The position numbers and the translations under genes are program-made. A stretch of DNA of 64,000 nt from Acanthacorydalis orientalis. Lineage: Eukaryota; Arthropoda; Insecta; Megaloptera; Corydalidae. Under the pieces are notes generated by a model. The model had not been told where the DNA came from and made no database searches. It saw only the letters and a list, made by a program, of their open reading frames with translations. This document shows, piece by piece, positions 1,651 to 43,600 of this stretch (within the stretch, counting starts at the first letter, position 1; every line of letters begins with the position of its first letter). The stretch spans positions 15,353,010-15,417,009 of the forward strand of contig CM068315.1 of the NCBI GenBank assembly GCA_034766995.1. Direction: 5' to 3'.

Positions 1651-1840
1651 GATTGCTTTCGCAAATGAATTCTTTTTTCATCACGTAAATTATAAAAAAA
1701 TCAGGCCAAAAATGTTCAATAAATCATTATTGATTGTTGTCAATGCGCATTTAGATTACAATCCTATCATATTCAAAGTTCCAAGGTACAGATTTTTTTT
1801 TGTAGTTTGTGGGACGAAAAAAATAATTTATTAGTGAAGA
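1651..1840. repeat. Hairpin (foldback) repeat family, copy
   Basis: Left arm with CAAATGAATTCTTTTTTCA, AAATGTTCAATAAATCATTA and ATGCGCATT words; shortened right arm with GTTTGTGGGACGAAAAAAAT and TTAGTGAAGA. Family marks: an outer word GTGGCTAAATTCACTTTCAC, a middle word GTTCAATAAATCATTATTGA and an inner word ATTTCGATGGCAATGCCATC. Confidence 0.75.
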
Positions 1841-3565
1841 TTTGAATTTTTATTTTGTACAAATAAAATTTGACACTCTCATGTTTTGGATTTTGTTGTA
1901 TGCTTATTCTGCACTCTTTTCTATATTTTCTTTGTTTAAAAAAAGTGCGTATAACACAGTACGCACGTCCGTATTGAAACACCTTTACCATCGGTTAAAA
2001 TGTAAACATTTTTAAGAGCATTGTATCATGCATGATAAGCGAATGATTCAGTTTTTGTTTATTGATATTTTAAGAATCAGTTAACGAGAGAGGACAAAAG
2101 ATGGAATTTAGTATAAGAGGAAGACGGTAAATATAAAACAATAAGAATTGAATCAGAAAATTAATATTTTTTTTTAATATTTCATCAACTTTCATGATTT
2201 TTTTTAGTGGGGATTCAATTGGTATAACTGTTACTATGGGCTTATGATGACTGAAATATGAAATGCATGTTTTGGGTTATATGTTTTGAAGATATTGTGA
2301 AAAGACAGAATCTATAGTAGTACACCTATTTTTTTATCATTGCGATTATGAGATCAGTATTCATACTTAAATTAAGTTTTTCACGTAGAAAATTAACAAA
2401 TAGCGTTAAATATTCTGATGCTAAATTGACATTAAAATCTCCATTGAGAATCATTGCTAGTTTAACCTCTCCTTTGCCAAGGAATGTTGCACCTCAATGA
2501 GTAGTATTGAACGGTGTATAAAGTAGATTATATTATCCTTTTTTATTCGGAGAAATGTAATTCGCTACAATTACAATTGTTTTCTGTCTTCCATTTTACA
2601 TTCAGCAGTGCAGAATTCGCCAACTGCTGTTACCGTCACACCAAATAATTTGAATTGTGCAACAGTCATATCTATAAACGGAGTAACAATGTTAACTAAG
2701 CCGTCGATCGCTTCTACCGTCTACGCATGAGCCAACCCCCTCCCCACTATACGTACTAAAAACTTCCGTAAAACTTGTTTGTATTGGCTTTGAAAATTTA
2801 CTCCCAACGCAGCTAAAGAAGTTTCACTTCAAAAAGATTCGATTTTTCCTTACCTTGTTACTCTGAAGTAGAAGTACAGTTTCAAAAATATTATGAAAGT
2901 ATGTTTTTATATCTACTTTTCGGAAAATTTAGTACGAACGGAATACTGTCAATGCCTAAATTCGAGAAAACATTCGATCTTAGTGCAAATCGTATATAGT
3001 GGATAGAAATATTTTCAGTTATTTCTAAACGGTTACCAAAGACAAACGAATAAAATAATAAATCCATAGTTTCATAAATGATTTATCTTTTACTCTACAT
3101 ACTACAAAATATCTTTTTGATTATCACTGTTTCCTATAAAAATAGTTTCAGAATACAGTTTAATATGTAAAGATGTATTTGATTAAAAATGTTGTCATTA
3201 GAATGAAACTATATGTGAAAATATAACATTTTAGATTTGATATTTATTCATTCTATAAATAAGTAAAATTACGTACCAATTGAGACACTGTCTAATCACT
3301 AATTTTAAGCTCTCTAGATATTATTATTTGTAGTGAAATATTTATTGTGTCGAAATATTAACAATATTTCGAATAAAAAATAGAAAAGTGAGTAGCTATT
3401 ACTTATGATCTTTTTATTAAAATTTGGTACAATATCTAAATATACTATTTTATTCAGATTTCTCGTAGTAATATACAGATAAAATATAAATAATTACATT
3501 TTAGTTGTACTTAAGGTCATAATCATAGTCCCTACGAGCTAGTTGTATTCTCTTTTCTATTATAA

Positions 3566-3704
3566 TGAATTTTTCACTCTCCATATAAAATACAGAATCG
3601 TGTGTAATGATAAAAACGTTCAATAATTGATTATTTTTAATTTTTAATTATCGCTTGAATGAATTTAGATGGCGAATCTATCACTTTAGGGCGTTTATCT
3701 ACAG
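3566..3704 (+). repeat. Hairpin repeat family, single arm
   Basis: One arm only, with TTTTTCACTCTCCATATAAA, GTTCAATAATTGATTATTTT and GATGGCGAATCTATCACTTT words. Confidence 0.6.
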
Positions 3705-3760
3705 AAACTTCTTAGTACGAGATGAAACATTAATATCTAGCACGATCACAAAAACAGTTT

Positions 3761-4022
3761 TCACGCTGTGGCTATATTCACTTTTATTACAAACCATACC
3801 AAACTTTTTCAATTAAAAATATTCAATAAATTATTGGTTATCTTTAATTGTCGCTTATGCGCATTTCAATGGCAACGCCATCATCCTCAGAACGCCAAGT
3901 TACCAAAACATGGATCCGAATAAGCAAAAATTAAAAATAATCAATAATAATTTTTTGAATATTTTTGTTAGGGAAAATTTGATGTAATTTGTGGGGTGAA
4001 AAAAATAATTTATCTGTGAAAA
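3761..4022. repeat. Hairpin repeat family, full two-armed copy
   Basis: Left arm begins at GCTGTGGCTATATTCACTTT and reaches GGCAACGCCATCATCCTCAG; right arm returns through AATAATCAATAATAATTTTT to GTGGGGTGAAAAAAATAATT and CTGTGAAAAC. The arms pair over most of their length. Confidence 0.8.
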
Positions 4023-4524
4023 CCTAGTACGATATTCAAACATTTTCAATACTTTTAGAAAATGTCAGTTATCCCATTACAAAACGACTGATAAAACTAT
4101 TTATTCATTTTTTTTTACTTCCAAACTCAACCGATGTAAAACAATTTAAGTATTTCCAAAACAAGGCGCAGTAGTTTATAGCATAGCGATTTTTATTATT
4201 GAATTAATTAAATTTGTTATAACGAGTCTCATACCGAACAAAAAAATACATCAAAAATGTGTTTTTGATTATTTACAATGTTCGATAAAATATAACCTTT
4301 TCATGTAATTCGACAAATAGATGTGTTTTTTTTTCAATAAAAGTGCTGATAAGATAATTTCATTGACTGTTAATACATTTAATATACTCGTAGTCGTGAT
4401 ACAGATTGAGAACCATAATTATTTATAAATAGTATCAGCATGATAATTACATAAATTAATATTTATATTGAATGTGATTAGAGAAATTAAAAATAGTTTT
4501 ATGTAAATTTATAAAGTATATGTA

Positions 4525-4533
4525 TATATATAC

Positions 4534-4631
<98 letters not shown>

Positions 4632-4744
4632 GAATATTCGTGCAGATTCACATTAATTGCATCGAATGTAACAGATGTAAAATACTTTAAAATATATGTA
4701 AATTGTCGAACAAATAATGTCAATGAACTCATTGACAACAACAT

Positions 4745-4812
<68 letters not shown>
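4525..4812. repeat. Two (TA)n microsatellites separated by 120 bp
   Basis: (TA)n at about 4525-4628 and 4748-4812; the first has a few CA interruptions. Confidence 0.95.
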
Positions 4813-4814
<2 letters not shown>

Positions 4815-6049: not shown

Positions 6050-6612
6050 CACAGATGTTTAGTTATTCATTATTGAAGAATTTTTATTATTGGTTATTTG
6101 CATTTCGATCAATGTCATCTTTAAAGTGTCAAGGTATAGAATAGTTTTAAAAAACGTTTTGCAGAAAAAATATATGAAAAAGTATGAAATCTGCTTAGGA
6201 CAAATATCATTCCTTTTTCTTACTTATAGATATTTAATCTTCTATCTTAATGTAAAATCTGAAAAAATCAGTCAATTATATATAATGCACAGATTTTTTT
6301 TAAAAAAATTTAGTAAAGTGTTTGATATTTTTTTTATCACAATATAATTATGACTCTGTAGCTAAATTCATTTTTTATTACACTGTAGCTAAATTCACCG
6401 GAATAATTCAGTTGTAAAAGTTCATTTTGCATTTTGTGGTGGAAAAAAATAATTTTTCGTTCCAAAAACAGCAAAATATTTTTCTGTACCTTGGTGCTCT
6501 GAAGATGTTGGAAGATATAAGAAACAATCTAATATTCTGAATAATAATTTATGTAAAATTTTTGACCACAAAAAATTGTCTGTAGGTTGAAAAACGAGTT
6601 AATTTGTGAAAA
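6050..6612. repeat. Hairpin repeat family, clustered arms
   Basis: A left arm at about 6050-6145, a direct duplication of the outer word CTGTAGCTAAATTCA at 6355 and 6383, then an inverted arm (ACCTTGGTGCTCTGAAGATG to GGTTGAAAAACGAGTTAATT) ending at 6612. Looks like nested or rearranged copies. Confidence 0.6.
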
Positions 6613-6894
6613 TAGTAGTATTAATAATGAATTCCTGTCTAGTTCATCAAAAGTATTCTTTCATCTACAAACATCTCTTAAGAATAAATTAAAAATTGAA
6701 TTAAATTTACATTCATTTCGTTATGTCAGCGATAAAGAGACAACAAACAATAGCAATCATAAGAAAGGCGACATAAATAATAGTTAAATGAGATTGTAGG
6801 CGAAGAAAATAAAAAGTTTTCTTCTTTATTCTATTACATTGTAAATCACTAAAGAAGTTTTGGCAAATAAATCAATATTACAAAACACTTAACA

Positions 6895-7092
6895 TTCTTT
6901 TAATATGTGTTCAATAATTGTTCATTGTTCATTTTTATCATTTATAAGTATTTCGATATTGATACAATTATCTTCAAAACGCAGGATACAGAAAATCTCA
7001 TAAAATCATTATGACATTTTTATAAACAATTTATGAGCATTTTTAGAACTATTTTGTGGCGTTTGGGGTAGTGATTTATTTATGGAAGTGTG
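6895..7092. repeat. Hairpin repeat family, diverged copy
   Basis: Left arm GTTCAATAATTGTTCATTGT to ATTATCTTCAAAACGCAGGA; right arm reduced to TTTTGTGGCGTTTGGGGTAG and a terminal TTTATGGAAGTG. Confidence 0.55.
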
Positions 7093-7455
7093 TTTAATAA
7101 CTAAGTCAAAATAGAATCACTAGAGATCATTAAATATTGTATTTGGGTTAAAACTAATTAATTTCTATTTTTCATTATATTTTCATGAATAATTTTATGT
7201 ATTTGCATACTTTAATAATGACATAAAAAAATGATAACTGTACATTCTAATAATTGACATGCGTTGGTTCAATACAGATTGTTCTACGTTTATTTTTATT
7301 CCTTGTTTTTTTTTTCACGTACAGCACATATAAATTATTTGACATATATTGAAAAATATTTTCGATGACTAACAAATGATTCGGATATCAAAGATCAAAG
7401 TTCAACTCTGATAGAATCGACTGAAATCTGTAAACAAATTAAGTAAATACGCCAC

Positions 7456-9180: not shown

Positions 9181-10663
9181 GGTACAATGTATAGAAAAAT
9201 CAAAGAATGTTATGATAAGATACAATCGGGGAATTTTAAGCACAAAATACTATGGTCTCTTATCAATTTACCTATTCCACTCCTCGCGTTGAAATACTCA
9301 TGCTGTCATCGTCAAGAAATCGAGGCCGCTTGTATTTCTAGTATAAATTCTGAGAATTGTACAGGTCTAATTAATAAGATAAATGCGAAATTAATTTATA
9401 TTGATTTATAGCATTTGTTCGCAGAGTAAATTCCTAACAGGTCATTGTCTTTTTACTACATTTCTCATTCACAACATTCTATAAAACGATCAAATGTTTG
9501 AAAATCGCATTCTAAATTTAAGAAATGAATTATTTTTTCACTCCACAAACCACAAAGATTTTTTTCTGAAGAAATAGATCAATGATTAAACATTAAAATA
9601 AGATCAGTCACAGATTGTATAAGAAATAAATGTAAACAACATGATAAACATAAAAAATAATATTAAGAAGAATGGAGAAAATTTTCTATTTAAATAATAT
9701 CATATGTGATGAATGAATAAAGTATGAAGCAAATTTCAAAATTAACATAAAATAGAAAAATAAATGAAATAACATAAGAAGTAATCAGGTTTTCATTTTA
9801 TTTGTATTCACCAGCGAAATTTCAACACTAAGACGCTTAATATATTCAAATCCAGTTGAAACACACTTTTAGTGCTAAAGACTAAATTAAGAAATCAGGG
9901 TCTGATTATTTCAGATCTAAGCTAATACTATCGGACACAAAAGCTGTTGTCGAGATCCTGTAGCCCCGGTATGGCCAGTAACATCGCGATTTACAAACAA
10001 TACGACCAAATACTCAAATAATAAAAAAATATTTTAGATTAAAAATGAACCCTTTTAAAAAGATGGAAGAATAAAACAATGTCATTAAGATAGTAACAAA
10101 TTGATTGAAAGAGAATATTGCATTTTATTCACAAAGTTGCAAACTGTCTCCAAAGTACGCTTGGAGTTAAAGAAGACATCAACTTTGATAAAGTTTTTTT
10201 CATTAAAATAAAATAGTCTTCAAGTATTGATTATCTTATAAGTTACTTACTATATTATATGAGTGAGCAGATTGCTTAAAAATAACTGGAATTCCAGATA
10301 GGATTCTAAAAGGGATTTTTTAATTATCCAGATTGAAGAATACGATTTTGAACCAATGTCTCAACACTTGAGACAAAATGATCGTCGCTAAAAATTCTAA
10401 ACAAAATAAAAAACGGAGTGAATAAATGTAAAAAAAGGTTTGTTTAAAAATCGAAAACTGAATTGGTTGTGAATTTGTAATCAGCTCCTTGAGCCATCCC
10501 TCACTGCGAATACCGACCACTGAAGCTCACAACTCGAATCGCCGAAATGATTTTGTAGAGGATTTTCGCTAAAAGAAGAAACACTTTTTTATAGCTTCTT
10601 GAGTTTATCCATTGGATTTTCAGATAGTCCACGACAAAATCTTATTAACCTACAATTCGGGTA

Positions 10664-10935
10664 CTAGTTTCATTCATTTTTACAAATTAATTCCTTTTTC
10701 GTCCCACAAACCATAAAAAATTCTAATCAAAAAATGTTCAATAGATCATTATTGATTGTTGTTTATGCGCATGTGAATAGAGATTATATCATCTTCAGAG
10801 CGTTAAGGTGGAAAAATATGATTTTTTGTACCTTGGAGCTCTGAAGATGATTCGTACAAGCAACAACCAAAAATGATCAATAATGATTAATTGAACATTT
10901 ATGACAGAATTTTTTATTTTTTATTGCATTATGGA
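10664..10935. repeat. Hairpin repeat family, full two-armed copy
   Basis: Left arm TACAAATTAATTCCTTTTTC to ATCATCTTCAGAGCGTTAAG; right arm ACCTTGGAGCTCTGAAGATG back through AATGATCAATAATGATTAAT. A clear inverted pair with a loop of about 20 bp. Confidence 0.8.
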
Positions 10936-11345
10936 AAATGGATTTATGTATGAAGATAGATTCAGAGCTACGGTATGAGAAATGTACATTGGTATGTCTC
11001 TGAATCATCGCCAAGAAATCTGTATTTAATTTTAACTCGAGGTCGTTTGAAAAAACGTGCGTGAACAAATTCATAAAATTTCGATCTGACGTCTCTCAAC
11101 TAATTTTTTAATCCGTCTCTGGAACTTTCATTAGATTAACACGGATAGACTTAGAGTATGTTTTGTTTTGACTGCTATTCGTAAATATTACCATCTCCAC
11201 TAAAAGATTAATAAAATGAGTATATATTGGCAAACATTCATTCATTGTCCCTGAGCCAAAACTAATGTACGGTCACACGTGCAATTCACGAAGCAAGGCC
11301 AAATATAGATTCATAATACAAATTATTATCAAATAACACCTCGAA

Positions 11346-18211: not shown

Positions 18212-18603
18212 TAATATTTGAGAGAGATTAATTCTAGTTAGGTTCTAATTTTCGGCCACTCACAAATTATGGAATCTACAAATATTTTGAAAAGAATTTT
18301 GTATGGGTTGTTGAACAAATAGTACTTAGTATGATAGAGAAATGGATTAAAATGTAATAAAAATAAGATTCAGTGCCAAAAAATATTGTGAATATTTTTG
18401 TTTCCCACGAAATCAAAAAAGTCACAATACAGTGTAAAGTTGTGGATGTTATAACATACATTGTTGAAATAATTTGATCGTCGACTAGATCAAGGAGTTT
18501 CGCTAAAAGGACAAACACTTTCTTGGTCTCCCGAGTTCATGCCGTGTGTCTCTAGAGTATTCACAAAGGAATCCTATTAATAACGTACAAAATTTTTAAT
18601 TTA

Positions 18604-18852
18604 GTTTTCACACTGTGACTAAATTCACTTTCACAAATGAATTCTTTTGATCTCACAGATCACAAAAATGTTCAATAAACCATCATCGATCATTTTTCAT
18701 TATTGTTAATTCGCATTTTGATGGCAGTATCATCATCTTCAGAGCATCAAAGTAACGAAAGAAACACGCATAATTAATAGTCAAAAATAATCGATAATAA
18801 TCTATAAAACGTTTTTGTTATTTGCGGGGTGAAAAAAAAATTATTTGTGCAA
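18604..18852. repeat. Hairpin repeat family, full two-armed copy
   Basis: Left arm from CACACTGTGACTAAATTCAC to ATCTTCAGAGCATCAAAGTA; right arm from CAAAAATAATCGATAATAAT to GGGGTGAAAAAAAAATTATT. Confidence 0.8.
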
Positions 18853-24700: not shown

Positions 24701-27700
24701 CTCAATATCCTTTCCGCTTCGTCATGCCGTCCTTTGAGTATCAGCCATCGGATTGATTCAGGGATTATCCATATGAAAGATAGGATTAGTATGGCAGGCG
24801 GATACATAATTCTGAATTGCGTTCTCCATGAATCTATCGTCCACGCTAAACAGCCAAGAAGAGCTTCTCCAATTGGAAACACTGCACTGACGATCGCTCC
24901 GACCAAAACACGTTTACTTGGGCCAACAAGCTCCAGTCCTACGGTTTGAATATATTTTATACAAACTGATTTCTTCGAAGATAATAGTATATACTGAAAT
25001 AGGTCTATATAATGCCTAACATCTGTGGCTAAATTTAGTTTCATAAATGAATTCTTACTTTCTCCCCCTAAACAAAAATGTAGTCAAACATTTTCAATAA
25101 ATCATTATCTATCATTTTTGATTGTTGTTTATTATGCATTTCGATGGCAATTTCGTTATCGACAAAACGCTAAGATATAAAAAGTTCTCTGATTGTTTCT
25201 TCTTCTATTAATATTCTAAATTATTTATAATCTACCAATATATATTAGATTGGTGCAAAAATAATTGCGTTTTTTGCGTATCGAGTTGAAACACGCATAT
25301 ATCAGTTTAAAATTATATTTATTTATCAAAATAAAGACCATTGGCCTGTGCACATTCCTCAAGTAGGAAACAAGTTTGTTTATTCCTAGAAGATAGAATT
25401 CCGGAATCCTGGAATTAACGAATTCATCGAAAGCGCATTGAGCGGATGCTTGATCTTTGAAATTTTCTCTCGTAGGAAATTACTCAAATATTAAAAAAAT
25501 GATAATCTGTCCGAAACAGGTCACAAGAGAATAAGGTGGGTGAGGTAAGGTTTTATAACTCAGTTAATTTATTTTTTTTAAAATCATTTGTGAGACGTGT
25601 GGTCGGGCGTTGTCATGAAGAAGATTTGACCCTCTTCGATTGACTAATGCTGGCTGTAAATGATGCAAATTGTCATGCATTTTTTCAATTTTCTGACAAT
25701 ATATTTTTGCTGTTCTTGTTTCACCTGATTTAAGAAGTTGTAGTGAATGATGCCACTTGCTGACCATCAAACAGTGGTCATAATCTTTTTTTTATGAAAC
25801 TTCGGTTTAGTAAACTGTTTTGATGCTTCTCCTCGGTCTAGTCATTGTGATGAACGTTTACGATTGTTATAGAGAATCTATTTTTCATCACATGAGAAAA
25901 TTCGATCAAGAAAGGGATTTTTGTTGTGCAAAATAATTTCTGTTGCTTTACGTTCCAATTTAAATTGATACAACAAAATCGGATGAATTTACTTTTTTTC
26001 ATGATTTATTTAAGAGGTTATATCCAACAATACTAAAGAATGAAAAAATAGACATAATCAGTAGTGTTAATTTCATTGTTTACAATGATGTATCACGTGA
26101 CTATAACAAAATAAAACGGTAATTAGAAAATTGTCACCAAACTTAAAATGATAAAAACCGTAATTATTTTTGTACCAACTTAATAAAGACATAAACCAAA
26201 ACAACATAATAAAGCATTTTATTTCTAATTATTTGAAAGAGTTTATTTAATTTCAACGTATACTGAATTTAAAAAAAATAGATATGTTCGTATTTCTTTT
26301 TTTATCTTAGCCATGTATGTAACTATGACAAATACAATGATAAGTTTGAAACACGATTTATGCTCGATTTGAACTATTAATTATATTGTTTAAACTTGAT
26401 AATTATTACATATATTGAAATTGAATAAACAGAATAAATGATCAATTTTTCATCAAAGAAGTTTTTGTAGTTTGTCAGATGAAAGAGGAATTCATAGCGG
26501 TGAACTAAAATCTTATTTTTGCAAATACTTTTGTTATGATTGTTTATTTTCAAAAAATAATTATTTTCCACTTCATAAATCACAAAAAAAATTTTTCAGA
26601 TCAAAAAAATTCAATAAATCATTTTTTTATTATCGCTTATGCACGTTTCCATAGCGATGCCGTCATTTTTAACGATCAAAGGTATAGAAAAGTCTGTGGT
26701 TCTGTGAAAAGTGTGAAATATGCATAAGAAACTAACAAAAATGAACAATTATAATTTATCTAGCAGTTTTGAACAGAAAAACTTGTAGGTTGAATTTATA
26801 TACCTAAAATAATCTATTAACTATTTTAATGATAATTACTGATTGCTAATTAACATTACAAAAGTATTAATAATTATTTATTTATATTTTATTCTTCTGT
26901 ATACAAATATATCTGTTTAATGGACCAAAAAATTACTTACTTTTTGAGAACTATTACTTTTTTGTGTGTCTAATAATCAACAAAAACATAATAATTGTAT
27001 TAGCATGTATAATATATCATCGAAAAATAATACATTTCTTCAAAATGAAGACTTTTTTATTCATTAAACATATATATTTGTATAAAAAAATAAAAACAGA
27101 GAGACAGTAAAAATTATATTAAAAACATGTATAGAATTCATAAAATTATTTTATCTGTGTTTGTATTAATCATTCAATAACATTTTTCATTTAGTTTCAA
27201 TGTATGTAATATTTATCAAGTGTAAACGATATGATTAATAGTTCAAATCAAACAAAAATCATGTTCCAAAATTTATCATCAAATTTGTTATACTTATATG
27301 AATGTTTAAGATAACAAAAATATAAACTTAATCTCTTTGTTAAAATTTAGAATTAAGTTGAATAAATTTTTCAGATAATTAGAAATAACTTGAATCAGAG
27401 ATTTTTCTGTATATTGGTATTTTGAAGATGAAGGTATCCAGATCTAAATGCGCATAAGCAACAATCAAAAGTTATTGATACTATTTATTGGATACTTTCG
27501 ATCAGAAAGTATTTTCTGGTTTATGGAATGAAAATAGAATTCGTACTTCAAAGTGATCGAATTTAAAATTGTAAGAACTTTAAAAAAATTAAGAAAAAAT
27601 TAATAAATCATGATTTTATGATTTCATAAAAAAACTGAACACTTTTGATCAAGACATTTTTTTTGGTTTATAAATTGAAAAAAGTTTTAAATACATTTAT

Positions 27701-30700
27701 ATTTCAGTTTGTAATTTGTAAATACATTCCTGATGAAAACTATTCAATAAATGTTTATCTATCATTTATGAATAATACTCAAGCGCATTTCGATTTAGAT
27801 GCCATTATCCTCAGACGGTAAAGGTAAACAAAAATTTCTAAAATTTTATTCACAATATTACATGGATTATATTTTCACCCCAAAAATCATAAAAAAAAAT
27901 TCTGATTAAATATGTTCAATAAATCATTATTGATCATTTTCGATTTGTGCTTATCTGTTAGTTTATGGTGATACTACCGTTTTCAGATTTTCTTTGTACC
28001 TTGTTGGTCTGAAGAAGATGGAATTTTTATCTAAATGCACATTAGTAACAATTACAAACTATCTATAACGATTTATTCAGTAATCAATGACGATTTATTT
28101 ATGAAACATTCAAAAATGATCATTAATCATTCATTGAATATTTTTTTATTATTTCTTGGATTGTGGTACGAAAAAAAAAGATTTATTTGTGAAAGTGAAT
28201 TAAGGCATATTGTCATGTCTGTATTTTTTATCCACAAACTTTATCAGCCCCAAGCACCAGTCTTTGTAGAGTAATATCGATTTAAAATGAATCAAAAGAC
28301 AATTCAATTTTTCTGTAAACAAATATTGAAACTTGTACAAACCCAAAACGAATCCAGCACTAAAAACACCTCCATTCACAATAGCATCGATCAGTTCAAG
28401 TAGAATGTAAATAGGATATGTGGGTGCGAACGATCTGGTCAGACCGACGACCGAACTGGCGGTAATTCCAGCGACAAAAAGAGTCCTGCGACCGTATCTG
28501 AAAATATTGTTATTAATATTGTATTCTTGATTGAAGTACATACTGTTTATTACCTATCGGATAGAAATCCTGTCACTGGTAACGATATAAACATGCCAAT
28601 ATTGTTAATTGTACCCACTAGAGTCAATTTCCAATTGTTCTCTTCGCATAATATGTTGAACTACAACGAATAGGATAGTAGTAATATATAAATTTAATTT
28701 TTTTGAAGAAATGAGGTGGAGTGTTAAATTATGAGACTGTTTCTTTCGAGATGTATTAGAAACATTTTAAACATGATTTAATTCTTTATGTGCTGTAGGA
28801 CTTTCAAGTCCCTTAAACAAACACATTTTGTAACTAATATTACATAATCAATGATTCATTATCCAGCTTACGTGATTTCTATGTTCGAAAAAATGCTTCA
28901 AAATTGAGATTTTTTTAAAAATATTATGAACTTTTTACTTGTGTTTTCAAATATTATTATGTTTTATAATCAAAACGATTTTGTTCCATTTTGCATTTTA
29001 ATTAATTGAGTAAACAAAGTTTAATTGAGTAAAACATTTGAATTTAGAAGAAAAAATGTATTTTTTTTGTAATTTTGATTGTTGAATATGTAATTCCTCA
29101 ACATAAATGCAATTAAATTAATAATTAGAATCACATTTAGTTATAAAATATCGTGTTTTGCATTAAAAAAAAAACAAGAACATTTTTCTTTCAACGAAGA
29201 CTGGTGATAAAAACAAAAATAAATTTAAAAATGAACTTTTCAATCATACTACAAACCATAAATTATTTTTAGAATAAAATTGTTCAAAGATTAATTAGTA
29301 GTCATTATTAATTTTTGCTTATACGAATTTCGACTGTAGTTCTCTAAGACTCTGAGTGCCATTTAGAATTTATTGTATCTTACCACTCTGAGGACGATAG
29401 TATTGTTATCGAAATGCGAATAAACACTAATCAAAAATGATCAATAATCAATTATTGAACGTTTTTCGTTAGAAGATTTTTTGTGGTTTCTGAAGAGAAT
29501 GAAAAAAACAATTCCTGGAAGTGAATTTAGCCACAGTGCGAAAATTATTTCCAATAAGTAGTTCTGTCAATCATTTTATTATTTACGAAGTTTTAATTTT
29601 AGTTTGAAATCTATCAAATTTCATTTAATTATAATAAAATTGATTTTATTTTAGACGTTATTCTGCGTTTTATATTGGTTTATTTTCTTTTTTACGCAAT
29701 TTTAAGACTTATTTTTAAACACGTTTCAAATTAGAAACAAATTTAGTCTCTTTAAGCATGACAAACGTTTTTTCGGATCAAAATGTTAAATAATTGATTA
29801 TTACCCATTGTATAATAGTTTATATTTCGATAGTGATCTCTGATTTTTGCGGAAATGATGGCTTCAGTATTGAAATGTGCAAAAATTATTATCAAAAATG
29901 CCAAAAAACAGCGTTTTTCATTTCGATCAAACAAAAATCGTGGTTTTGGAGTGAGAGCATTCATTTTTAAACAAATTTGGCCCAATAAAATAAATGGCAA
30001 AACTGCACTGTTTATAAATTTTATTGAATATATATTATAAAAAAAAACAATTTACTCAAAATTTTCTTAAATGTGTTAAGAAAAACTACGTATGTTCAAG
30101 AAATGACATTGGTTATTGATTAATACTCGAAATATATTCTGTTTTCAAAATATACCTCCAGTAATATATTAACCTTAACGAACACAGAACTTTTTATAGT
30201 ATACTTATAAGATATGGTGACCAAGAAATCGGACACAGATTTTTAAATCTTCCTAATGTTATCAAAACGTGTGTTTTTTATTTAAAATTTTAGTTAAGGG
30301 AATGATAGTCATATTGTGGGTAAGACCGGAGAGTATGAGAGATTATTAAGAATATGACAGTATAAGATACTAAAAATACTTTTTAATCTGGAAATTGTTA
30401 CGCAAGAGATACCGACTGCTTTGTTTTTGGAATTTTGAGAAAATTGTTCAGGTTATGGCATCAAATTTTTCAAAATTTTCCAGTTATAATATGACTTAAT
30501 TAAAGTAATAATGGTGATGTTAAAAGGTTAAAACAAGTTTGTCTTGAATTACTAAATCAATTTAGATTTTTTTACAACCAATTGTGTATAGTATAATTTA
30601 TTATTTAAATATGTCCGGAATTCGATTGAAAATCTATGAGAAATATCAACTCACATCGTTTGCAATATTCGTCTTTTTAGAAGCGAACACGAACTGATCA

Positions 30701-33700: not shown

Positions 33701-34803
33701 AAGCTTCATGGACAAAAGATTATGGTCAATATTTGGTGGTTGGCAAGTGGCATCATTTATTACAACTTTTTAAATCCTGGTAAAACAAAAACAGTAAAAA
33801 AATATTGCCAGAAAATTAAAAAAATGCATGATAATTTGCATCATTTATAGCCAGCATTAGTCAATCGAAGAGGGCCAATTCTTCTACACGACAACTCCCG
33901 ACCACACGTCTCACAAATGACTTCAAAAAAAATTAAATTAACTGGGTTATGAAACCTTACCTCGCCTACATTATTCTCCTGACCTGTTTCCGAGAAATTA
34001 TCATTTTTTTTAATATTTGAGTAATTTCCTATGACAGAATATTTTCAAAGATCATGCATCATCTCAAAGCGCTTTCGATGAATTCGTTAATTACAGGACT
34101 CCAGAATTCTATCTTATAGGAATAAACAGACATGTTTCCTATTAGTAGAAATGTGTGTAGGCCAATAGTCTTTATATTGATTAATAAATATAATTTTTAA
34201 CTGATATATGTCATTAAATTCGATACGTAAAAACCGCAATTATTTTTGAACCAACCTACTAGTTCTGAGATTGTGGCTAAATTCACTTTCACAAATGAAT
34301 TCTTTTTCAACATATTTAGTGGAACGAAAAAAATATTCATTTATGAAAGTGCATATAATTCTTCTCTTTCAATGTTATTTATAAAGACGGTTTTGGTTCA
34401 GTTTTATATTAGATATTTATTTCACAAATAAATATATATTTCTTCATCCATAACAGATATTCTGTTGATTGTATAAATTAAATGATTATAACAATCTGCA
34501 CTCTTTTTTTGCGGAATTACTAAGTAACCGGCAACTGATTACTAGTAAAGTGCGTTTTAATGTAAACAAAGAATTAAGTTTTATCGTAGAACGTGCTTTA
34601 CTCTATGCGTGTAAACTAATTTGATGATTTCAGACCAATGCGTACCTGTAATCAGGAATCCTAGCCGCAAACACATACGACAAGGAGAACATTGCGGCGA
34701 AAATGAACGGCACACAAATAAAAACGAGATTTCGTTTCTGGTATTTTCCAAATTCGCCGATATCCATCAGCACATCATCGAGATCGATCTTCTTCGTAGC
34801 CAT
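21550..34803 (-). CDS. SLC22-type organic cation/carnitine transporter, complete eight-exon gene
   Basis: The product is a predicted 542-residue plasma-membrane transporter of the SLC22 organic cation/carnitine family (MFS, normally 12 helices). Exons on the minus strand are 34803-34646, 30877-30655, 28660-28554, 28497-28343, 24938-24616, 24545-24221, 22822-22641 and 21705-21550. They sum to 1629 bp, join in one frame and all have GT/AG borders. Family marks: N-terminal KIDLDDVLMDIGEFGKYQKRN; a large cysteine-containing extracellular loop after helix 1 (residues about 53-130); GFLSDRYGRR near 158-167; ELVGPSKR at 217-224; PESIRWL at 274-280; a second MFS loop LNKYGRR at 402-408; and YTAELFPTSIRH at 457-468, the most diagnostic block. 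The length is usual for the family. The substrate cannot be inferred. The introns hold a mariner, a deleted mariner, two piggyBac-like MITEs and several hairpin repeats, but none interrupts coding sequence. Confidence 0.93.
21966..22150. repeat. Hairpin repeat family, copy in intron 7 of transporter B
   Basis: Outer end TACAGTTCTGGCACTATGAA, middle AATAAATCATTTTTGATTCA, inner CCATCATTTTCAGAGCGCCA; short right arm GGCGGAGAAAAATGAATCTG. Confidence 0.65.
22466..22592 (-). repeat. Hairpin repeat family, arm beside exon 7 donor
   Basis: AAGATGATGCATTGCCATCG, CAAAAATGATCAATAATGAT and GGTTAATTTATTTGTGGAAA; ends about 50 bp from the exon 7 splice donor. Confidence 0.65.
22641..22822 (-). CDS. Transporter gene B, exon 7
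   Basis: Encodes GFEFLNLPFFLIGKCS, then YTAELFPTSIRHSLL and MFGRIGSMLAPQTPLL, the most strongly conserved SLC22 block. Acceptor TTTTTCAG at 22823; donor GTAAAG at 22640. A hairpin-repeat arm lies within 50 bp of the donor. Confidence 0.93.
23494..23821. mobile_element. piggyBac-like MITE with internal GTACC/GGTAC hairpins (intron 6 of transporter B)
   Basis: Left end TTAA|CACGTTCCGTGC, right end, inverted, AAACACGTTCCGTACC, i.e. about 12 bp of inverted terminus with a TTAA-type target (intact left, one change right). Inside are three small palindromic elements, the best being GTGTACCGATAACGGTACAC at 23649. No transposase. Confidence 0.6.
24221..24545 (-). CDS. Transporter gene B, exon 6
   Basis: Separated from exon 5 by a 70-bp intron. 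Opens with a charged stretch (NEKDELQTEKPKES, end of the central loop), then helices from CDLFKSRTL through the second MFS loop LNKYGRR to SFILIPTG. Donor GTATTG at 24220. Confidence 0.92.
24616..24938 (-). CDS. Transporter gene B, exon 5
   Basis: Opens LELVGPSKR, encodes the helices leading to PESIRWLILKGRHDEAERIL, and ends SASMN before donor GTACGT (24615). PESxRWL in the central cytoplasmic loop is a family signature. Confidence 0.93.
25030..25185 (+). repeat. Hairpin repeat family, single arm in intron 4
   Basis: TTTCATAAATGAATTCTTAC, TTTTCAATAAATCATTATCT, and GCATTTCGATGGCAATTTCG, directly beside the deleted mariner. Confidence 0.65.
25245..26183 (-). mobile_element. Deleted mariner element (intron 4 of transporter B)
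   Basis: Same family as the copy at 32963, opposite orientation. Ends TTAGATTGGTGCAAAAATAA and TAATTTTTGTACCAACTTAA-like, with TA duplicated on each side (25243-25244, 26184-26185). It is 939 bp against about 1.3 kb. Positions 25770-25564 keep a transposase stretch with KIYCQKIEKMHDNLHHLQPA and LLHDNARPHVSQ. Much of the N-terminal half is lost. Confidence 0.88.
26450..26790. repeat. Hairpin repeat family, rearranged copy
   Basis: An inverted outer end at 26460-26510, then a left arm (CAATAAATCATTTTTTTATT to GCGATGCCGTCATTTTTAAC) and a right arm through ATGCATAAGAAACTAACAAA. Confidence 0.6.
27395..27550 (-). repeat. Hairpin repeat family, single arm
   Basis: ATTTTGAAGATGAAGGTATC, ATGCGCATAAGCAACAATCA, then GGTTTATGGAATGAAAATAG. 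Confidence 0.65.
27742..28203. repeat. Hairpin repeat family, clustered copies
   Basis: One left arm (27742-27830) followed by a two-armed copy (27855-28203) whose right end reads ATTTATTTGTGAAAGTGAAT. Confidence 0.7.
28343..28497 (-). CDS. Transporter gene B, exon 4
   Basis: Completes the Arg of the MFS loop (DRYGRR) and encodes the next helices to SAGFVLG. Acceptor TTTTCAG at 28500-28498; donor GTTTGT at 28342. It ends in phase 1, matching exon 5. Confidence 0.9.
28554..28660 (-). CDS. Transporter gene B, exon 3 (helix 2)
   Basis: Begins FNILCEENNWKL after acceptor TAG and runs through helix 2 to GFLSD plus the first two bases of an Arg codon. Donor GTAATA at 28553. The following intron is only 56 bp. 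Confidence 0.92.
29231..29546. repeat. Hairpin repeat family, full two-armed copy in intron 2
   Basis: Right end complete: GTGAATTTAGCCACAGTGCG. Left arm runs from CATACTACAAACCATAAATT; inner words CTCTGAGTGCC and CACTCTGAGGACGATAGTAT face each other. Confidence 0.78.
30655..30877 (-). CDS. Transporter gene B, exon 2 (extracellular loop)
   Basis: Acceptor TTTCAG then G at 30877; completes an Arg codon and continues CHIPECEN. It encodes most of the large cysteine-containing extracellular loop, up to CDQFVFASKKTNIAND. Donor GTGAGT at 30654. Phase 0 at its end. Confidence 0.92.
31010..31125 (+). repeat. Hairpin repeat family, single arm
   Basis: CTCGCATATAAATCACCAAA, ATTCAATAAATAATTTATGA, then a decayed inner part. 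Confidence 0.5.
31641..31720 (+). other. tRNA-derived sequence or SINE head
   Basis: A B-box match GGTTCGATTCT (31698-31708) lies at suitable distance after an A-box-like TGGTGTAAAGTGCAGTGG (31641-31658), with GACTACTATACATGCGGCTT between them as in tRNA-derived repeats. Arms do not pair well enough for a functional tRNA. Confidence 0.45.
32365..32757. mobile_element. piggyBac-like MITE with TTAA duplications (intron 1 of transporter B)
   Basis: TTAA at 32365-32368 and 32754-32757 flank imperfect inverted ends (CAAATTGAATGCCGG; inverted right TACATTGATTGCCG). Subterminal GGTCAYCGRTGAYCCC motifs recur three times (near 32512, 32685 and 32725), one next to a run of 12-13 C. No coding content. 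Confidence 0.65.
32963..34258 (+). mobile_element. Mariner element, near full length, decayed (intron 1 of transporter B)
   Basis: Inverted termini TTAGTTTGATGCAAAAATAA and, at the right, AATTATTTTTGAACCAACCTA; a TA flanks the left end and a TA at the right end is merged with the terminus. The transposase ATG is at 33153 (MEKKQIRHIMFCEF). Recognisable blocks: helix-turn-helix region with NRELAKQLNVKHSTVVRY; KKVDKRVPFEL; catalytic IVTCDEKWIIYNN; LLHDNSRPHVSQ. There are several stops and a frameshift after LLHDNSRPH. In the shifted frame YSPDL is present, but the third catalytic Asp of the PxDYHFF block reads Asn (PRNYHFF). Inactive. Confidence 0.9.
34259..34350. repeat. Hairpin repeat family, minimal copy abutting a mariner end
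   Basis: Only the two outer ends remain: AGTTCTGAGATTGTGGCTAA ATTCAC on the left and GAACGAAAAAAATATTCATT TATGAAAGTGC on the right, about 90 bp in all. Confidence 0.7.
34646..34803 (-). CDS. Transporter gene B, exon 1 (start codon)
   Basis: ATG at 34803; encodes the cytoplasmic N-terminus and helix 1, ending AG|GTACGC at 34646/34645. It is the same length and phase (2) as the orphan exon at 7613-7456. The ATG is the only one that gives the conserved family N-terminus. Confidence 0.93.
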
Positions 34804-35350: not shown

Positions 35351-35539
35351 AACCTTATCGACCACTTTTCAAGTATTAACTATCCGATAGGGAATTTATC
35401 AATCAACGCATAATACAGGTAATTAAAACATTTTTTTTCAATTGGAAGAGGCAGCCGACCTGACCTAGAAACACAAACCTATATAAGCGAACAGACAATT
35501 CTTTCGTATTTTTATAATTATTACTTATTACATTTACAA

Positions 35540-35850
35540 ATTTCATCCAATAAACTACACACTTTTCTTCTGATAAAAAATGTTAAATACATCATTATCT
35601 CTTTATTTTGAATACGGATTGTAGGCATTTCGATGACGATTTCATAATTTTCAGAGTGTCAAGGAACGGAAAAATTTACAAAGTAGTTAAAAATATACTG
35701 AACTGTATTACAAAGCTGTGAAGAATGTAGTAACGTCATTGAAATGCACATTAAAAACGTTTAAAATTGATTTATTGAACATTTTTATTCAGAAACATGT
35801 TTTGTGATTTGCGAGATGAAAAATAAAATTTATTTTTGAAAGTGGACTCA
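35540..35850. repeat. Hairpin repeat family, two-armed copy
   Basis: Left arm with TTTCGATGACGATTTCATAA; right arm with GTCATTGAAATGCACATTAA and GATTTGCGAGATGAAAAATA. Confidence 0.65.
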
Positions 35851-37267: not shown

Positions 37268-37680
37268 GATTTTCACAAATGAATTCTTTTTTTCTGATCA
37301 GAAGATTATATTTTTCTGCATCTTGTCGCTTTGAAGATGGTGGAATCACCATCGAAATAGGCATTAATAAAAATTAAAAAGAATCAGTATTGATTTACTG
37401 AACATTTTTGATTAGAAAAAAGTATTGTGGTATGTGAGGTTAAAAAAAGTGTCCATTTGTGTAAATAATAAATAAGAATTATAAAAATACGAAACAATTG
37501 TTTAAGTATAAAAGTATTTTTGTTTCCATGTCATTTCGGATGAATAAATGATTTGTTGAACCAACAGCTAAATAACATGTAGAAAATTTTGCCCAGAACA
37601 CATTTTGTGGTCTACGACCTGCGAAAAGAATTCATTTGTGATGGGGAATTTGATCATAGTGTCAGAACTGTGTTATGTAT
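37268..37680 (-). repeat. Hairpin repeat family, two arms
   Basis: GTCGCTTTGAAGATGGTGGA to GTGAGGTTAAAAAAAGTGTC at 37268-37465, then a second outer end at 37590-37680 with GCGAAAAGAATTCATTTGTG and the extended terminus ATAGTGTCAGAACTGTG. Confidence 0.6.
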
Positions 37681-38445: not shown

Positions 38446-38894
38446 GTTTTTTTATTTACATTTTTCGTATCTAAGCCGAGAATATTTGTCTCTACTTTCG
38501 TAGATGTTAGAAATTAGTATCCGTAATTAAAGGATTTCCATTTATGATCTGAAATAAACATTAATGGAAATAAAGATGATAAATAATTCTGCCAATCTTT
38601 ACATTGTGACATACAGAGTAGTGCTGCGTAGAACTTGCTTTTTCTAGAGCGTTCAGCCTTTAATATGTCACAGTCTCAACAAATAAATTTAAAAATACGA
38701 CTTATTGTATTTTTTTTTCTGTTTCTAAAAGCCTTTTATACTGTACTGTAATAGTCTATATCTTTATAACAATCTTAATAAAGAAGAGAACATGTATTGA
38801 TATTAAAGATAGAATTGTAAAACTTATTCTTGTTCATTATTACTAATTGATAATTAATTTATATATAACGGAGAATTCTGTATCTAAGCGCTTT

Positions 38895-39010
38895 TGCGAT
38901 GTGTGCATTTTTATCAGTTCAATGTGCATAAATGTCAATCAAAAGTAATCAATAATCAATTTTTGAACTTTTCGATTAATTTTTGTAGTTTGTAGGGTGA
39001 GAGAACAATC
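38895..39010 (-). repeat. Hairpin repeat family, single arm
   Basis: AAAAGTAATCAATAATCAAT then GTTTGTAGGGTGAGAGAACA. Confidence 0.55.
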
Positions 39011-40032
39011 CAATTTCCCATTGACAAACTCTTTCTGAAGACTTTTAAGGTTTAAAAAATTATAAATGATTCAATAAAAGAATGGACACACATTCAATTG
39101 ATAATTTATTAATATTAATATTATATTATATTAATATTAAGAGATAATTCATCACCAGATCGATTTCAAAAAATTAATTTAAAATCTAAGGCCTATATAC
39201 AATGATAATTTAATTTTTATATATTTATCCAAGTTTTGTTCAGGAGTATTTTTTATTCTAGTATGAGAGGAGTGAAAGTGAATTTAGGCACATGTCAAAA
39301 ATATAATTCTCACAATTAACTTCAAATATGTAATCAAATTTGTGTATCATAATTTATTCATATATGATTTTCGAACAGCGATTATTGAATGGAGATCAAT
39401 CAAATCGAAATCAATCTCAGAAAAAAACAAGTGCGATTAAAAAATAATATCATCAGTATATAATTGACGCATGAAAAATCAAACTTATAGAGATAAATCA
39501 ATTAAATACTCAGGCGATCAATGATTTTTTTTGAATTTCGTACTTATTTTTTAAGAGTGATAATTACACTTAAGTTGAATAAACTTCACAGCGATATTAC
39601 AATACAAAAAGATAAGATTTAAGTAACATGACTACCACATGTGACAATTAAGTGAATAATTTCCAACACTTCCTCCGAACTGAAATCTTTAAGTATGCTC
39701 TTACATATTTGTCTAGAATATTCATCTTGTTTTTATTTTGAAATAGAGTTAACATCGACACTTAATGACAATAACAGAAAGACAAAGATAAATTGTTAAG
39801 GAATTAATTATCGGTTTTAAATAATCGAATATTAATCAAAATAAGTCGTGTATTTTAACAAATGGAGAAGATACGGGTGTTTGATAAAAGTGAGTAGTTT
39901 GTTGTAAAAAGTTGTAAAGATAAAATTATCATTTTATATTGTCCTTAGTTAGGTTATACAATAATTAGTTAATAATTGTAATTTTTCAAATGGGAGATTG
40001 AAAAATACCGTTTTAGATACAAAAGTCTTCAC

Positions 40033-40595
40033 AATATAATTCTTGTACTGTAGCTAAATTCATCCCACCCTATAAATCATAAAAAAATCAGATAAAAAAT
40101 GTTCAATAATTTGTTATTGATAATTTTTGACACCTGCTTGTGCTTTTTTGATGACAATACCATCACATTCAGAGTACTTCAGTACAAAAAACTCCGTTAT
40201 GTGTAAATAAAATATTAATTACTAATTTTAACAAAAGTATTATAATTTTGTCTTCATTATCAATACACGTTCATTTCTTTATTAAAATTCATATAGAGGC
40301 CATCGATTTTGTTAACTGTTTCGTTATAGTATAAGAATGTAATTAATAATTATTTTCATTATATATATATATATATATATATAAATTAATTCATATTCTT
40401 AATTCATATTCACCTCGCGACCATCCACAAATTTGATTCATTATTTTTAATAGACTATCCTGTAATCTGGTGCCCTGAGCATGATGGCATTTTCACTGAA
40501 ATGTGTATGAGCAACAAATGAAAATGATCAGAATATTGAACATTTTTGATCAAAATTTTTTGCTGTATGTGGGTCGAGAGAAAAATTAAATTTAA
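40033..40595. repeat. Hairpin repeat family, copy with a (TA)n in the middle
   Basis: Left arm 40033-40190 (outer word TGTACTGTAGCTAAATTCAT), right arm 40470-40595 (GTGCCCTGAGCATGATGGCA). Between them lie a duplicated TTAATTCATATTC and (TA)n at 40364-40383. Confidence 0.6.
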
Positions 40596-41374
40596 AAATT
40601 CAAAAGTCTTAAAACATGTAAGATAATTTTGTTACTAATAGAAAACAAAATAAAATACAGCGTTTATTAGAAATCAGACTAAATAGACCGCAAACGCGTT
40701 TCACAAAAAGACCCGCATGAATTCTTCAGTGAATTTTCAAGTTTGCAGTGTAATTTGCGTCTGCCGGGAAGTCTCACTTGTGTTAATAATTTTCAAACCG
40801 ATTTAATAATTTAAGTATCAATTAGTACAACGAATGAGTGCGTCCGCGTGAACTTATTTTTAATATAAACTCGACTTTAAATTATTTAAATGCATTCTTG
40901 ACCATCTTGAAGTCTGTTTCTGGAAAATTACGCATGGTTAGATACGCTTCTTTAATAAAAAAAAGTCATTTTCAGAATTAAATTATGCTCATGTGTCTCA
41001 AATTTAAAATATCTGAAAATATTTTCGTTTAATTGTAAGATTCCGTGACAATACGAAATAGCGGTAAACAGTACCATGTTAATTTAACGATCGTTTTAAA
41101 CGAATTATTTAGATGCCAATTAGTCTAGAAAATAGATTGAATAATCACATTTATCTGGTTTCGGCGTCAATCCAAGATTGTTTTGGCATAGTTACTGGGT
41201 TTTATTGACCAATTGGCCGAATTATTATTTACTGTTTTCTGAGAAAATGAAACACACGTACTGATAAGACAAGTTGAATTGTTCATAATATCAAAATGAA
41301 GTGTACAAGAGAGCTTATAAATCTGGGAAGTATATAGATTTTTTCTATAATGAATTTTCATCGCTCATAAATGG

Positions 41375-41500
41375 TACATTTTTTTGGAACGAAATGTTCA
41401 ATAATTATTATTGATTTTTTTATTTTTTTTGCGAGAATTTTGCAGATAATATCATTATCTTCAGATTATTGAGATTTAAAAAAGTCTGAAAAATCTTTAT
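41375..41500 (+). repeat. Hairpin repeat family, single arm
   Basis: GTTCAATAATTATTATTGAT then AATATCATTATCTTCAGATT. Confidence 0.5.
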
Positions 41501-41592
41501 GAATACTCAGCCACATTTTATCTTGTTTTCGATTTTTCTTCTTAAGGTTTTTAATTAAAAACAAATTTAACAAAGTATTAATTAAAATTTTG

Positions 41593-41596
<4 letters not shown>

Positions 41597-41644
<48 letters not shown>
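41597..41644. repeat. (TA)n microsatellite
   Basis: Uninterrupted TA run. Confidence 0.95.
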
Positions 41645-41647
<3 letters not shown>

Positions 41648-41749
41648 AAAAATACTAGTTGTTTTCCAGAATTTTTATCGAACATTATGTAATTATTTTG
41701 AAGATACTTTTGAATATGAAATCTATTTAAAATATTCCCGGATAGATTT

Positions 41750-41990
41750 TGTTACAGATGTGTATTTCTTATGTGCATTTCCATGCTGATATGATCATCT
41801 ATAGAGCGCCATGGTATAGAAAAATTGATTTATCTATATTTTAATGTACTGAAGATGATGCCTTTGCCATAGAAATGCACATAAGCAACAACCAAAAAAG
41901 AATCAATAATATTTTATTGGATATGTTTGATTAGAAAAACAAGTTCGTGGTTGGTATGGTGAAAAATTTCATTTGTAAAAATGGATTTAT
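41750..41990. repeat. Hairpin repeat family, two-armed copy
   Basis: Left arm ATGTGCATTTCCATGCTGAT, right arm ACTGAAGATGATGCCTTTGC to GGTGAAAAATTTCATTTGTA. Confidence 0.65.
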
Positions 41991-42440
41991 GTCTTCATAG
42001 AACATTATACACAATCTTCATTTAATTGAAAATCGGTCTTCTGCTGTAGATATTGGGATACCTTTGCAAATTTTAATAATTTTAGTAGCAAATCTGAGGT
42101 ATATGTGCTATCGAGGTAACTATAACCGAATTGTGCTTCATCATAACAATTCAATGCCACATAATTTAATACACGCCCAGAAATAATTAAAATGGAACAA
42201 ATTTCATTTATTACACTTCGCCTACTCTGCTTTTAGTCCATTTGGCTTCTACTTATTCTTAGCACTAAAATGCAATCTTAAAGAAAAGTGTTTTGTATTT
42301 AACGGCCAAGTTAAAGTTGTCATTAAAGATTGGTTGGAGAAGTAAACAATAGATACTCTACAGGTTGATAAAAATGAGTTGATAAAGGTGGAGATTGTGT
42401 TCGAAAATAAATATATATTTTCAAATGATTTATATTAAAG
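41990..42440 (+). mobile_element. Degraded mariner C-terminal remnant, copy 2
   Basis: Reads IVLHHNNSMPHNL near 42135, then FSPFGFYLFLALKCNLKEK and FNGQVKVVIKDWLEK near 42230-42345. The match to HHDNxxxH and SPxDFHLF blocks of mariner transposase is clear, but the catalytic acids are changed. Homologous to 35860-36310 including the flank up to about 42680. Confidence 0.55.
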
Positions 42441-43439
42441 TTTCTCTGTTTTTATTTCATCCCAATATCTCAAATCATTGAAGATTTATAAGTCCATTTT
42501 GGAGTGATATTTATAATCAATAAAACATTTTTCATAGAAAAAACGAAAATAAAACACTTTTCAACGATTAACAATAAACTTTTATTTAATTGACTTATAA
42601 ACCTATTTTTATAAAGTGCAACCACGATTGCAGTATACAAATAGAAAAAATGTTTATATTTACTTTCATAAAAAAACAAAATTCGGTTTAAAAATTTCCA
42701 CGACGTTGTTTAGCAAAAGACAAAAAGTTAATATTATGTAAAAGTTGTGTAAAACTAGACGAAAATTAAAATAGAATTAAATAAACACTCAGTTGAGAAA
42801 TATTCGCGAACAAATATTATCTTTGAGTAAATACTTGTTTATCTTATCTACGAAAATTCAATTTAATGTGTGATTTCAACTGTGTCGCGTGTCAACAGTA
42901 CTTTAATTACTCTGTATAACTCTTTATAAATGTTTTCTTTAATTAAATAGGATTAATTAAGAAAATTGTATTTTTAGAATGACGCATTACAGACATACTA
43001 AAAACATACAATTTAACGAAAGATAAAAGGTGAAAAAATTATGAAGAAGTATTGTAAAATTTACGAGTAGTAAAATTTAAACAATAGATTTTTTTAAGAA
43101 TCAATATTAAGTAGGAAAATTAAATAGAGCTTTTAGAATAAAATGACATTAATATTACAGATTTTGTTGGGATTTATTGGTTGAGAGGGGAACAATTTTC
43201 GATTTATTTAAAATGTAACTAAAAAATGAGTAAGAGATACGTTCTTTTGGTGAAGATTGACATGGATCACTTAGATAAATTGGAAATAATTTGGATGACA
43301 TAGATAAATCTAAAGGACAAAGACAACGAAGATATGCTTAAAAGATTAACTCTTATTAAAAGATGTATTTTTTTAAATTTAAAACTAATAAAATATAAAT
43401 AATATTTCTATTGAATAGAAAAATCAAATACAACTTATA

Positions 43440-43600
43440 GACTTTTACAAATACATTTTTCTTCAGCCCATAAGCAACAAAAAATTCTTGACAAAAAATT
43501 ATCAATAAATAAGTATCAGTTATTTTTAATTGTTGGTGTTTCGATGGCAATGTTATCACATACAGAGAACTAATGTACAGGAAAATCAGTGTTATTTTTT
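43440..43600 (+). repeat. Hairpin repeat family, last copy before KDM1A
   Basis: TTTTCTTCAGCCCATAAGCA, TATCAATAAATAAGTATCAG, GTTTCGATGGCAATGTTATC. No further copy is seen until 52.5 kb. Confidence 0.55.

What the first reader, a model, noticed from the sequence alone, without database searches (positions are those of the whole stretch)
1651..43600. A dense, apparently unnamed family of long inverted-repeat (foldback) elements
Seen: one arm of roughly 150 bp recurs about forty times in both orientations. Ordered words are CAGTTCTGACACTGTGGCTA (outer), ATTCACTTTCACAAATGAAT, CACAAACCACAAAAAATT, GTTCAATAAATCATTATTGA, TTGCTTATGCGCATTTCGAT and CCATCATCTTCAGAGCGCCA (inner). Full copies (3761-4022, 10664-10935, 18604-18852, 29231-29546) are two such arms facing each other with a short loop, so the transcript would form a hairpin of about 120 bp. 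Inference: a non-autonomous element with very long inverted repeats, moved by an unknown transposase. Its hairpins could also be a source of small RNAs. I recognise no named family.
Basis: partly seen in the sequence, partly recalled or inferred. Interest (0 to 1): 0.8.

Follow-up and report, generated by a model that had tools for sequence, protein, structure and literature searches.

The report
Ancient palindromic mobile elements in lacewing
The repeats are the decayed remains of one family of short, hairpin-shaped 'jumping' DNA elements in an insect genome that looks like a lacewing's; it is a real and dense family, but of an ordinary, well-known kind.

Summary
The repeat is real. A profile of one arm, trained on the window's own copies, finds 59 arms (31 plus, 28 minus) and none in six control sequences. 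Arms cover 11.2% of the window. The arm is about 183 bp. Its tip, CAGTTCTGACACTGTGGC, directly follows TA in 8 of 15 preserved tips (P = 4.6e-5), with 0 to 4 of 15 at neighbouring offsets. One copy keeps both tips, with TA on each side. This is the anatomy of a non-autonomous, TA-targeting element (MITE), most likely of Tc1/mariner type. Forms include head-to-head palindromes, an asymmetric form, a tips-only form and one with internal sequence. Of 46 arms tested, 25 have no detectable partner. Copies differ from consensus by 22%, and in 8 of 10 pairs the two arms of one element are no closer than arms of different elements, so the family is old and decaying. The neighbouring LSD1-like gene is closest to Chrysoperla carnea, so the host is probably a lacewing. 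No transposase could be tied to the tips. The host genome search did not complete, and no repeat library was at hand, so 'unnamed' is untested.

The parts
10653..10984 (.). Best preserved full palindrome: two arms head to head, both tips kept, TA on both sides
3754..4025 (.). Full palindrome, left tip CAGTTTTCACGCTGTGG kept, inner part of right arm lost
18602..18856 (.). Full palindrome, left tip kept, right arm partial
29224..29547 (.). Full palindrome, right tip kept; its arms are 62% identical to each other
35533..35849 (.). Full palindrome; part of its right arm and the next ~620 bp are shared with 41913-42615
41763..41989 (.). Palindrome with truncated left arm; its right arm lies partly in the shared two-copy segment
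11704..11938 (.). Palindrome, left arm eroded
26543..26785 (.). Palindrome, right arm partial
27860..28219 (.). Palindrome in a cluster of arms; right arm in two pieces; right tip preceded by TA
29758..29982 (.). Palindrome, both arms partial
56996..57189 (.).
6866..7111 (.). Arm with a weak partner that lacks its inner part
   Evidence: p = 0.005
1654..1840 (+). Asymmetric form: one long arm plus only the outer part (to about position 70) of the other
   Evidence: (p = 0.003)
52558..52801 (-).
   Evidence: (p = 0.005)
6450..6613 (-). Probable asymmetric form; partner weak
   Evidence: p = 0.033, counted there as without partner
37269..37466 (-). Probable asymmetric form; partner weak
   Evidence: p = 0.016, counted there as without partner
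34261..34356 (.). Tips-only form: outer parts of both arms joined
40040..40598 (.). Long form: two facing arms with 268 bp between them, the first ~110 bp of which recurs at 38762-38873
38762..39015 (-). Arm plus the same internal sequence as in 40192-40298 (77% identity over 112 columns)
723..892 (+). Near-complete arm preceded by TA; no partner by score
9001..9175 (+). Complete single arm, TA before tip
21970..22097 (+). Single arm, TA before tip
25023..25183 (+). Near-complete single arm
53350..53522 (-). Near-complete arm, second best score (119 bits); no partner by score

Best explanation
The arms are decayed copies of one family of non-autonomous DNA transposons (MITEs) with very long terminal inverted repeats. 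The element inserted at TA, duplicated the TA, and began with CAGTTCTGACACTGTGGC, as Tc1/mariner-superfamily elements do. It was most likely cut and pasted by a Tc1/mariner-type transposase supplied in trans by a full-length element that was not identified in this window. The palindromic form probably arose when the inside of a parent element was lost, leaving its two long ends joined; later deletions gave the asymmetric, tips-only and single-arm forms. Shown: arms, tips, TA, forms, divergence. Inferred: the transposase, the cut-and-paste route, the parent element and the order of the forms.
For: 59 arms against 0 in six controls. TA directly before the tip in 8 of 15 tips, P = 4.6e-5 against a TA frequency of 0.104; at the twelve other offsets from -6 to +6, 0 to 4 of 15. 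The one copy with both tips has TA on both sides. Of 17 outer flanks of 150 bp compared, three pairs share short matches (14, 24 and 32 bp), the rest nothing at E < 0.01. Four loci look asymmetric; at three the second arm stops at about position 70 and at the fourth at 57, which suggests a subfamily that itself spread. Mean divergence from consensus 22.1%, K2P 0.267, with C>T and G>A the commonest changes. In 33 near-full arms the core (positions 79-118) is little better kept than the rest once base is allowed for: A 0.86 against 0.83, T 0.88 against 0.83, C 0.61 against 0.60, G 0.63 against 0.59, as expected of neutral decay. That TA plus CAGT marks Tc1/mariner is recalled.
Against: 7 of 15 tips lack TA at the exact position, and only one copy shows TA on both sides. 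The 32-bp flank match between 10656+ and 18603+ (87.5%, E 1.5e-7) is unexplained. No transposase or autonomous relative with these tips was found. Of 46 arms, 25 have no detectable partner, which a simple palindromic element does not predict. Two of the four asymmetric loci fall short of the p < 0.01 limit. The arm shows no internal direct repeats of the IR/DR kind.
Confidence: 0.8

Rival explanations
1. The arms spread by local segmental duplication, not by transposition.
For: Density is far higher in the left part (53 of 59). One pair, 35771-36493 and 41913-42615, shares about 620 bp beyond the arm. Other duplications occur here, e.g. 25246-26185 with 32961-34258, inverted, 79-86% identity. 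One 32-bp flank match.
Against: Other flanks of the 17 tipped arms share at most 24 bp. TA precedes the tip far more often than chance. Both orientations are about equally common.
Confidence: 0.05
2. A TA-targeting MITE of another superfamily; the CAGT tip is coincidence.
For: No transposase could be linked; no IR/DR repeats.
Against: TA duplication together with a CAGT tip is typical of Tc1/mariner (recalled).
Confidence: 0.1
3. The parent is the decayed mariner at about 61.6-63.0 kb, with the weak arms at 59938-59998 and 63255-63319 as its ends.
For: The two arms (23.3 and 22.1 bits) face each other across the remnant and match only outer positions 4-70 and 7-87, about the length shared by both ends of the asymmetric form. 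The left one is preceded by TA. The remnant has a Mos1-type HTH.
Against: The left arm lies about 1.6 kb beyond the C-terminal words of the remnant (61602-61646). The two arms with 200 bp each are no more alike than random pairs (score 21, 8.3% of 1000 random pairs reach it), and the 130 bp inside them share nothing notable. Homology with a second mariner copy at 33142 stops at 63020, but that is only about 10 bp before the start codon, so it does not fix the end of the element. Not supported, not excluded.
Confidence: 0.05
4. The hairpins are kept as small-RNA or regulatory units.
For: One copy folds very strongly (z -10.6); 4 of 5 folded copies beat every shuffle made.
Against: In 8 of 10 pairs the two arms are about as alike as arms of different elements; only 3756/3914 and 10656/10823 are clearly closer. 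The core shows little constraint once base is allowed for.
Confidence: 0.03

Closest known systems
MITEs of the Tc1/mariner superfamily, for example the Bari-related MITEs of Drosophila (PMC4877112, passages including part of the abstract)
   Same: Short, non-coding, AT-rich repeats with inverted ends; the paper proposes internal loss from a longer element, describes long-ended elements (about 250 nt) and both very short (116 bp) and longer forms. TA target shared (recalled for Bari).
   Different: Here the inverted repeats make up nearly the whole palindromic form (about 183 bp each). Repeats like Bari's three 18-nt direct repeats are not seen. The parent is unknown.
Foldback elements such as Galileo and Tetris of Drosophila (PMC4168063 and PMC4079207: search listing and start of abstract only)
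   Same: Very long inverted repeats and a fold-back shape.
   Different: Galileo is of the P superfamily (start of its abstract). A TA target and CAGT tip do not fit what I recall of Foldback and Galileo (8-9 bp duplications).
Tc1-like elements with long inverted repeats, such as Minos and Quetzal (recalled)
   Same: Long ends, TA target.
   Different: No coding part found here; tip sequences not compared.

Membership tests
MITE (non-autonomous DNA transposon) | Short, repeated, inverted ends, no coding part | tested here: met
   59 arms; forms of about 0.1 to 0.56 kb. Coding was tested only by one open frame through one arm, no relative
MITE (non-autonomous DNA transposon) | Defined tip and target-site duplication | tested here: met
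   TA before tip in 8 of 15, P 4.6e-5; on both sides in the one copy with both tips
Tc1/mariner superfamily | TA target duplication | tested here: met
   both-sided in one copy only
Tc1/mariner superfamily | Transposase of the IS630-Tc1-mariner type encoded by an element with the same tips | tested here: inconclusive
   Tc1/mariner remnants occur in the window (weakly); none could be tied to these tips; genome search not answered
Bari / IR-DR group of Tc1-like elements | Three 18-nt direct repeats within each end | tested here: not met
   Ungapped test on the consensus arm: best internal direct repeat scores 7, shuffles mean 8.2, 98% at least as high
Foldback / Galileo | 8-9 bp target duplication (recalled) | tested here: not met
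   One copy testable: flanks of 10653-10984 share TA but no 8-9 bp duplication
Any named Repbase or Dfam family | Consensus match | not testable with these tools
   No repeat library on hand; Rfam gives no match at gathering score in the window

The most novel reading that the evidence does not exclude
This family is one of the main unrecognised components of the very large 'unclassified' repeat fraction of lacewing genomes. If its density here (11% of 64 kb) held genome-wide, a single ancient palindromic MITE family would explain tens of megabases.
Probability: 0.15. Interest if true: 0.4.

Novelty: new member of a known kind. Interest (0 to 1): 0.25.

Why it matters
The Chrysoperla zastrowi sillemi genome paper reports 342.5 Mb of repeats (57.31% of the genome), with a high proportion, given as 53.8%, of unclassified repeats (PMC11830793, passages read). 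A family with defined tips and target would let annotators name part of that fraction. Its divergence (K2P about 0.27 from consensus) suggests insertions old enough to be shared among lacewings. Nothing about the mechanism is new.

Tried and rejected
Tried without result: whole-genome search with the copy 3761-4022. Exact patterns of the arm in viral contigs: a 20-base inner word, 0 hits; an 18-base tip, 2 hits, L001 and L002, in which the arm profile finds nothing at E < 0.1 (the file scanned holds both), so I take them as chance. Exact patterns in genome contigs, 0 hits. Protein search with a 72-aa open frame through one arm (52591-52806), no candidate. Rfam at gathering score, no match. tRNA scan, none.

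Rejected or not supported: internal direct repeats as in Bari; an older fold-back of the arm itself outside its core (outer part against reverse complement of inner part scores 12, shuffles mean 11.8); the mariner remnant at 61.6-63.0 kb as the parent, which is not supported but not excluded. The core of the arm is itself a near-palindrome of about 40 bp (score 53; largest of 300 shuffles 41), which explains weak antisense hits over the core.

An earlier profile at E < 0.01 gave 56 arms after removing overlaps; the 59 are from the longer profile.

Not done: comparison with Repbase or Dfam, empty sites, small-RNA mapping, other lacewing genomes.
Full report
What is there. The best preserved copy, 10653-10984, reads TA-CAATTC at one end and TA-CATTTC (reverse strand) at the other. 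Building a profile from the arms and iterating gives 59 arms at E < 0.001 after removing overlaps (62 raw), 31 plus and 28 minus. The reversed window and five dinucleotide shuffles give none. The profile was trained on the window's own copies. Arms cover 7193 of 64000 bases, 11.2%: 15.0% of 1-43600 and 3.2% of the rest. The model consensus has 178 positions, CAGTTCTGACACTGTGGCTAAATTCACTTTCACAAATGAATTC...CCATCATCTTCAGAGCGCCAAGGTACAGAAA. In the 36 arms that reach its inner end, the next five bases are most often AATCT (26, 20, 26, 16 and 22 of 36), hence 'about 183 bp'.

Ends and target. Of the 59 arms, 15 reach the first five positions of the model. Directly before the tip, 8 of these 15 have TA, where the window's TA frequency is 0.104 (P = 4.6e-5). 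At the twelve other offsets from -6 to +6 the count is 0 to 4. The seven without TA have AA, TT, AA, AC, CA, CA and AT, mostly one change from TA or shifted by one base. Of 17 outer flanks of 150 bp, three pairs match at E < 0.01: 723/21970 (14 bp), 18603/53350 (24 bp) and 10656/18603 (32 bp, 87.5%, E 1.5e-7). The last is unexplained.

Forms. (B) Four loci (1654, 6481, 37313, 52635) with one long arm followed by only the outer part of the second arm. At three of them it stops at about position 70, at 37313 at 57. In the stricter test only 1654 and 52635 pass (p 0.003 and 0.005); 6481 and 37313 do not (0.033 and 0.016). (C) 34261-34356, the outer parts only. (D) 40040-40598, two arms with 268 bp between them; the first ~110 bp of that interior recurs beside the arm at 38876-39015 at 77% identity. 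(E) Arms without a partner: of the 46 arms whose match reaches model position 140 or beyond, 21 have a partner on the inner side within 200 bp that beats 99% of 1500 random places, and 25 do not. For some of the 25, such as 723-892 and 53350-53522, I think by eye that a badly decayed partner is present, but it did not reach the threshold.

Age and constraint. In 54 arms with enough columns, identity to the consensus averages 77.8% (66.7 to 86.0%); over all cells 22.1% differ, K2P 0.267. C>T and G>A are the most frequent changes. I compared the two arms in 10 facing pairs (one arm used twice, with two right-hand pieces; the pairs at 18603 and 11794 were not in the set). Only 3756/3914 and 10656/10823 rank among the closer pairs (5 of 109 and 16 of 113 other comparisons are closer); in the other eight, 32 to 76 of 99 to 113 are closer. 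So the hairpin has mostly not been maintained. In the 33 near-full arms the core at positions 79-118 is 82.5% conserved against 74.2% elsewhere, but most of that is base composition. RNA folding of five copies: z -10.6, -1.6, -2.9, -4.1, -4.4.

Mechanism. A Tc1/mariner-type transposase acting on these tips in trans is the simplest reading of TA plus CAGT. The superfamily assignment by tip is recalled knowledge, not a test. The window holds other Tc1/mariner remnants: 51223-51759 (rve and DDE_3 matches below Pfam's cut-offs) and 62604-62990 (HTH_48 of Mos1, above its cut-off). None could be tied to these tips. The most tempting case is the mariner between weak arms at 59938 and 63255, which match only the outer 70-87 positions and face each other. 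Against it, the left arm lies about 1.6 kb beyond the remnant's C-terminal words, the two arms are no more alike than random pairs (p 0.083), and nothing notable is shared inside them. Homology to a second mariner copy stops at 63020, but that is only about 10 bp before the start codon and so does not settle the end. It stays a lead.

Host. The ORF at 44753-46078 plus an exon at 46159-46311 encodes part of an LSD1-like demethylase. Of 2104 matches (7998 candidates scored, best 120 listed) the best is a Chrysoperla carnea protein, P0001, 88% identity over 88% of the query; the other 119 listed are 66 to 79%. By tblastn the identity to P0001 is 77.7% over 422 columns of the long exon and 96% over 51 of the short one. 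So a neuropteran is likely; the species is not known.

Known or new. Seven literature searches were made. Their listings show no such family in lacewings. The library lacks most subscription journals, only two papers were opened, by passages, and repeat libraries could not be searched. The closest described kind is the MITE of Tc1/mariner elements with long ends, such as those of Bari in Drosophila (PMC4877112, passages). Bari-type direct repeats were not found here. I therefore file this as a new member of a known kind, with the caveat that a library match could make it already known.

Noticed in passing
44753-46323: LSD1-like gene closest to a 487-aa Chrysoperla carnea '1A-like' protein that ends inside the catalytic domain. 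A second, 746-aa C. carnea LSD1 is 68% identical to it over 484 columns. In this window too the match ends at about the same place (46311-46314), and no match to residues 458-746 is found in the window: perhaps a conserved truncated LSD1 paralogue in lacewings.
   Followed up: partly
35771-36493 and 41913-42615: Two copies of a segment of about 720 bp (68% identity) that begins inside a right arm and runs outward past its tip; either a duplication or a larger element that carries the arm.
   Followed up: partly
26887-27095, 26801-26947 with 11947-12090, 12028-12113 with 27017-27098: Apparently a second palindromic repeat lying next to arms of the main family.
   Followed up: no
12424-12708 and 21154-21437: Direct repeat of about 290 bp, 74% identity, found with the arms masked.
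   Followed up: no
19498-20168: Tandem array with a 37-bp unit (18.3 copies, 67% matches) lying between two arms.
   Followed up: no
25246-26185 and 32961-34258: Inverted duplication, 79-86% identity, beside a sugar-transporter-like ORF at 24598-25083.
   Followed up: no
61600-63020 and 33142-33323: A decayed mariner (Mos1-type) transposase remnant and a second copy of its start (67%); another weak Tc1-like remnant at 51223-51759.
   Followed up: partly
flanks of 10656 and 18603: A 32-bp match (87.5%) in the outer flanks of two otherwise independent copies.
   Followed up: no
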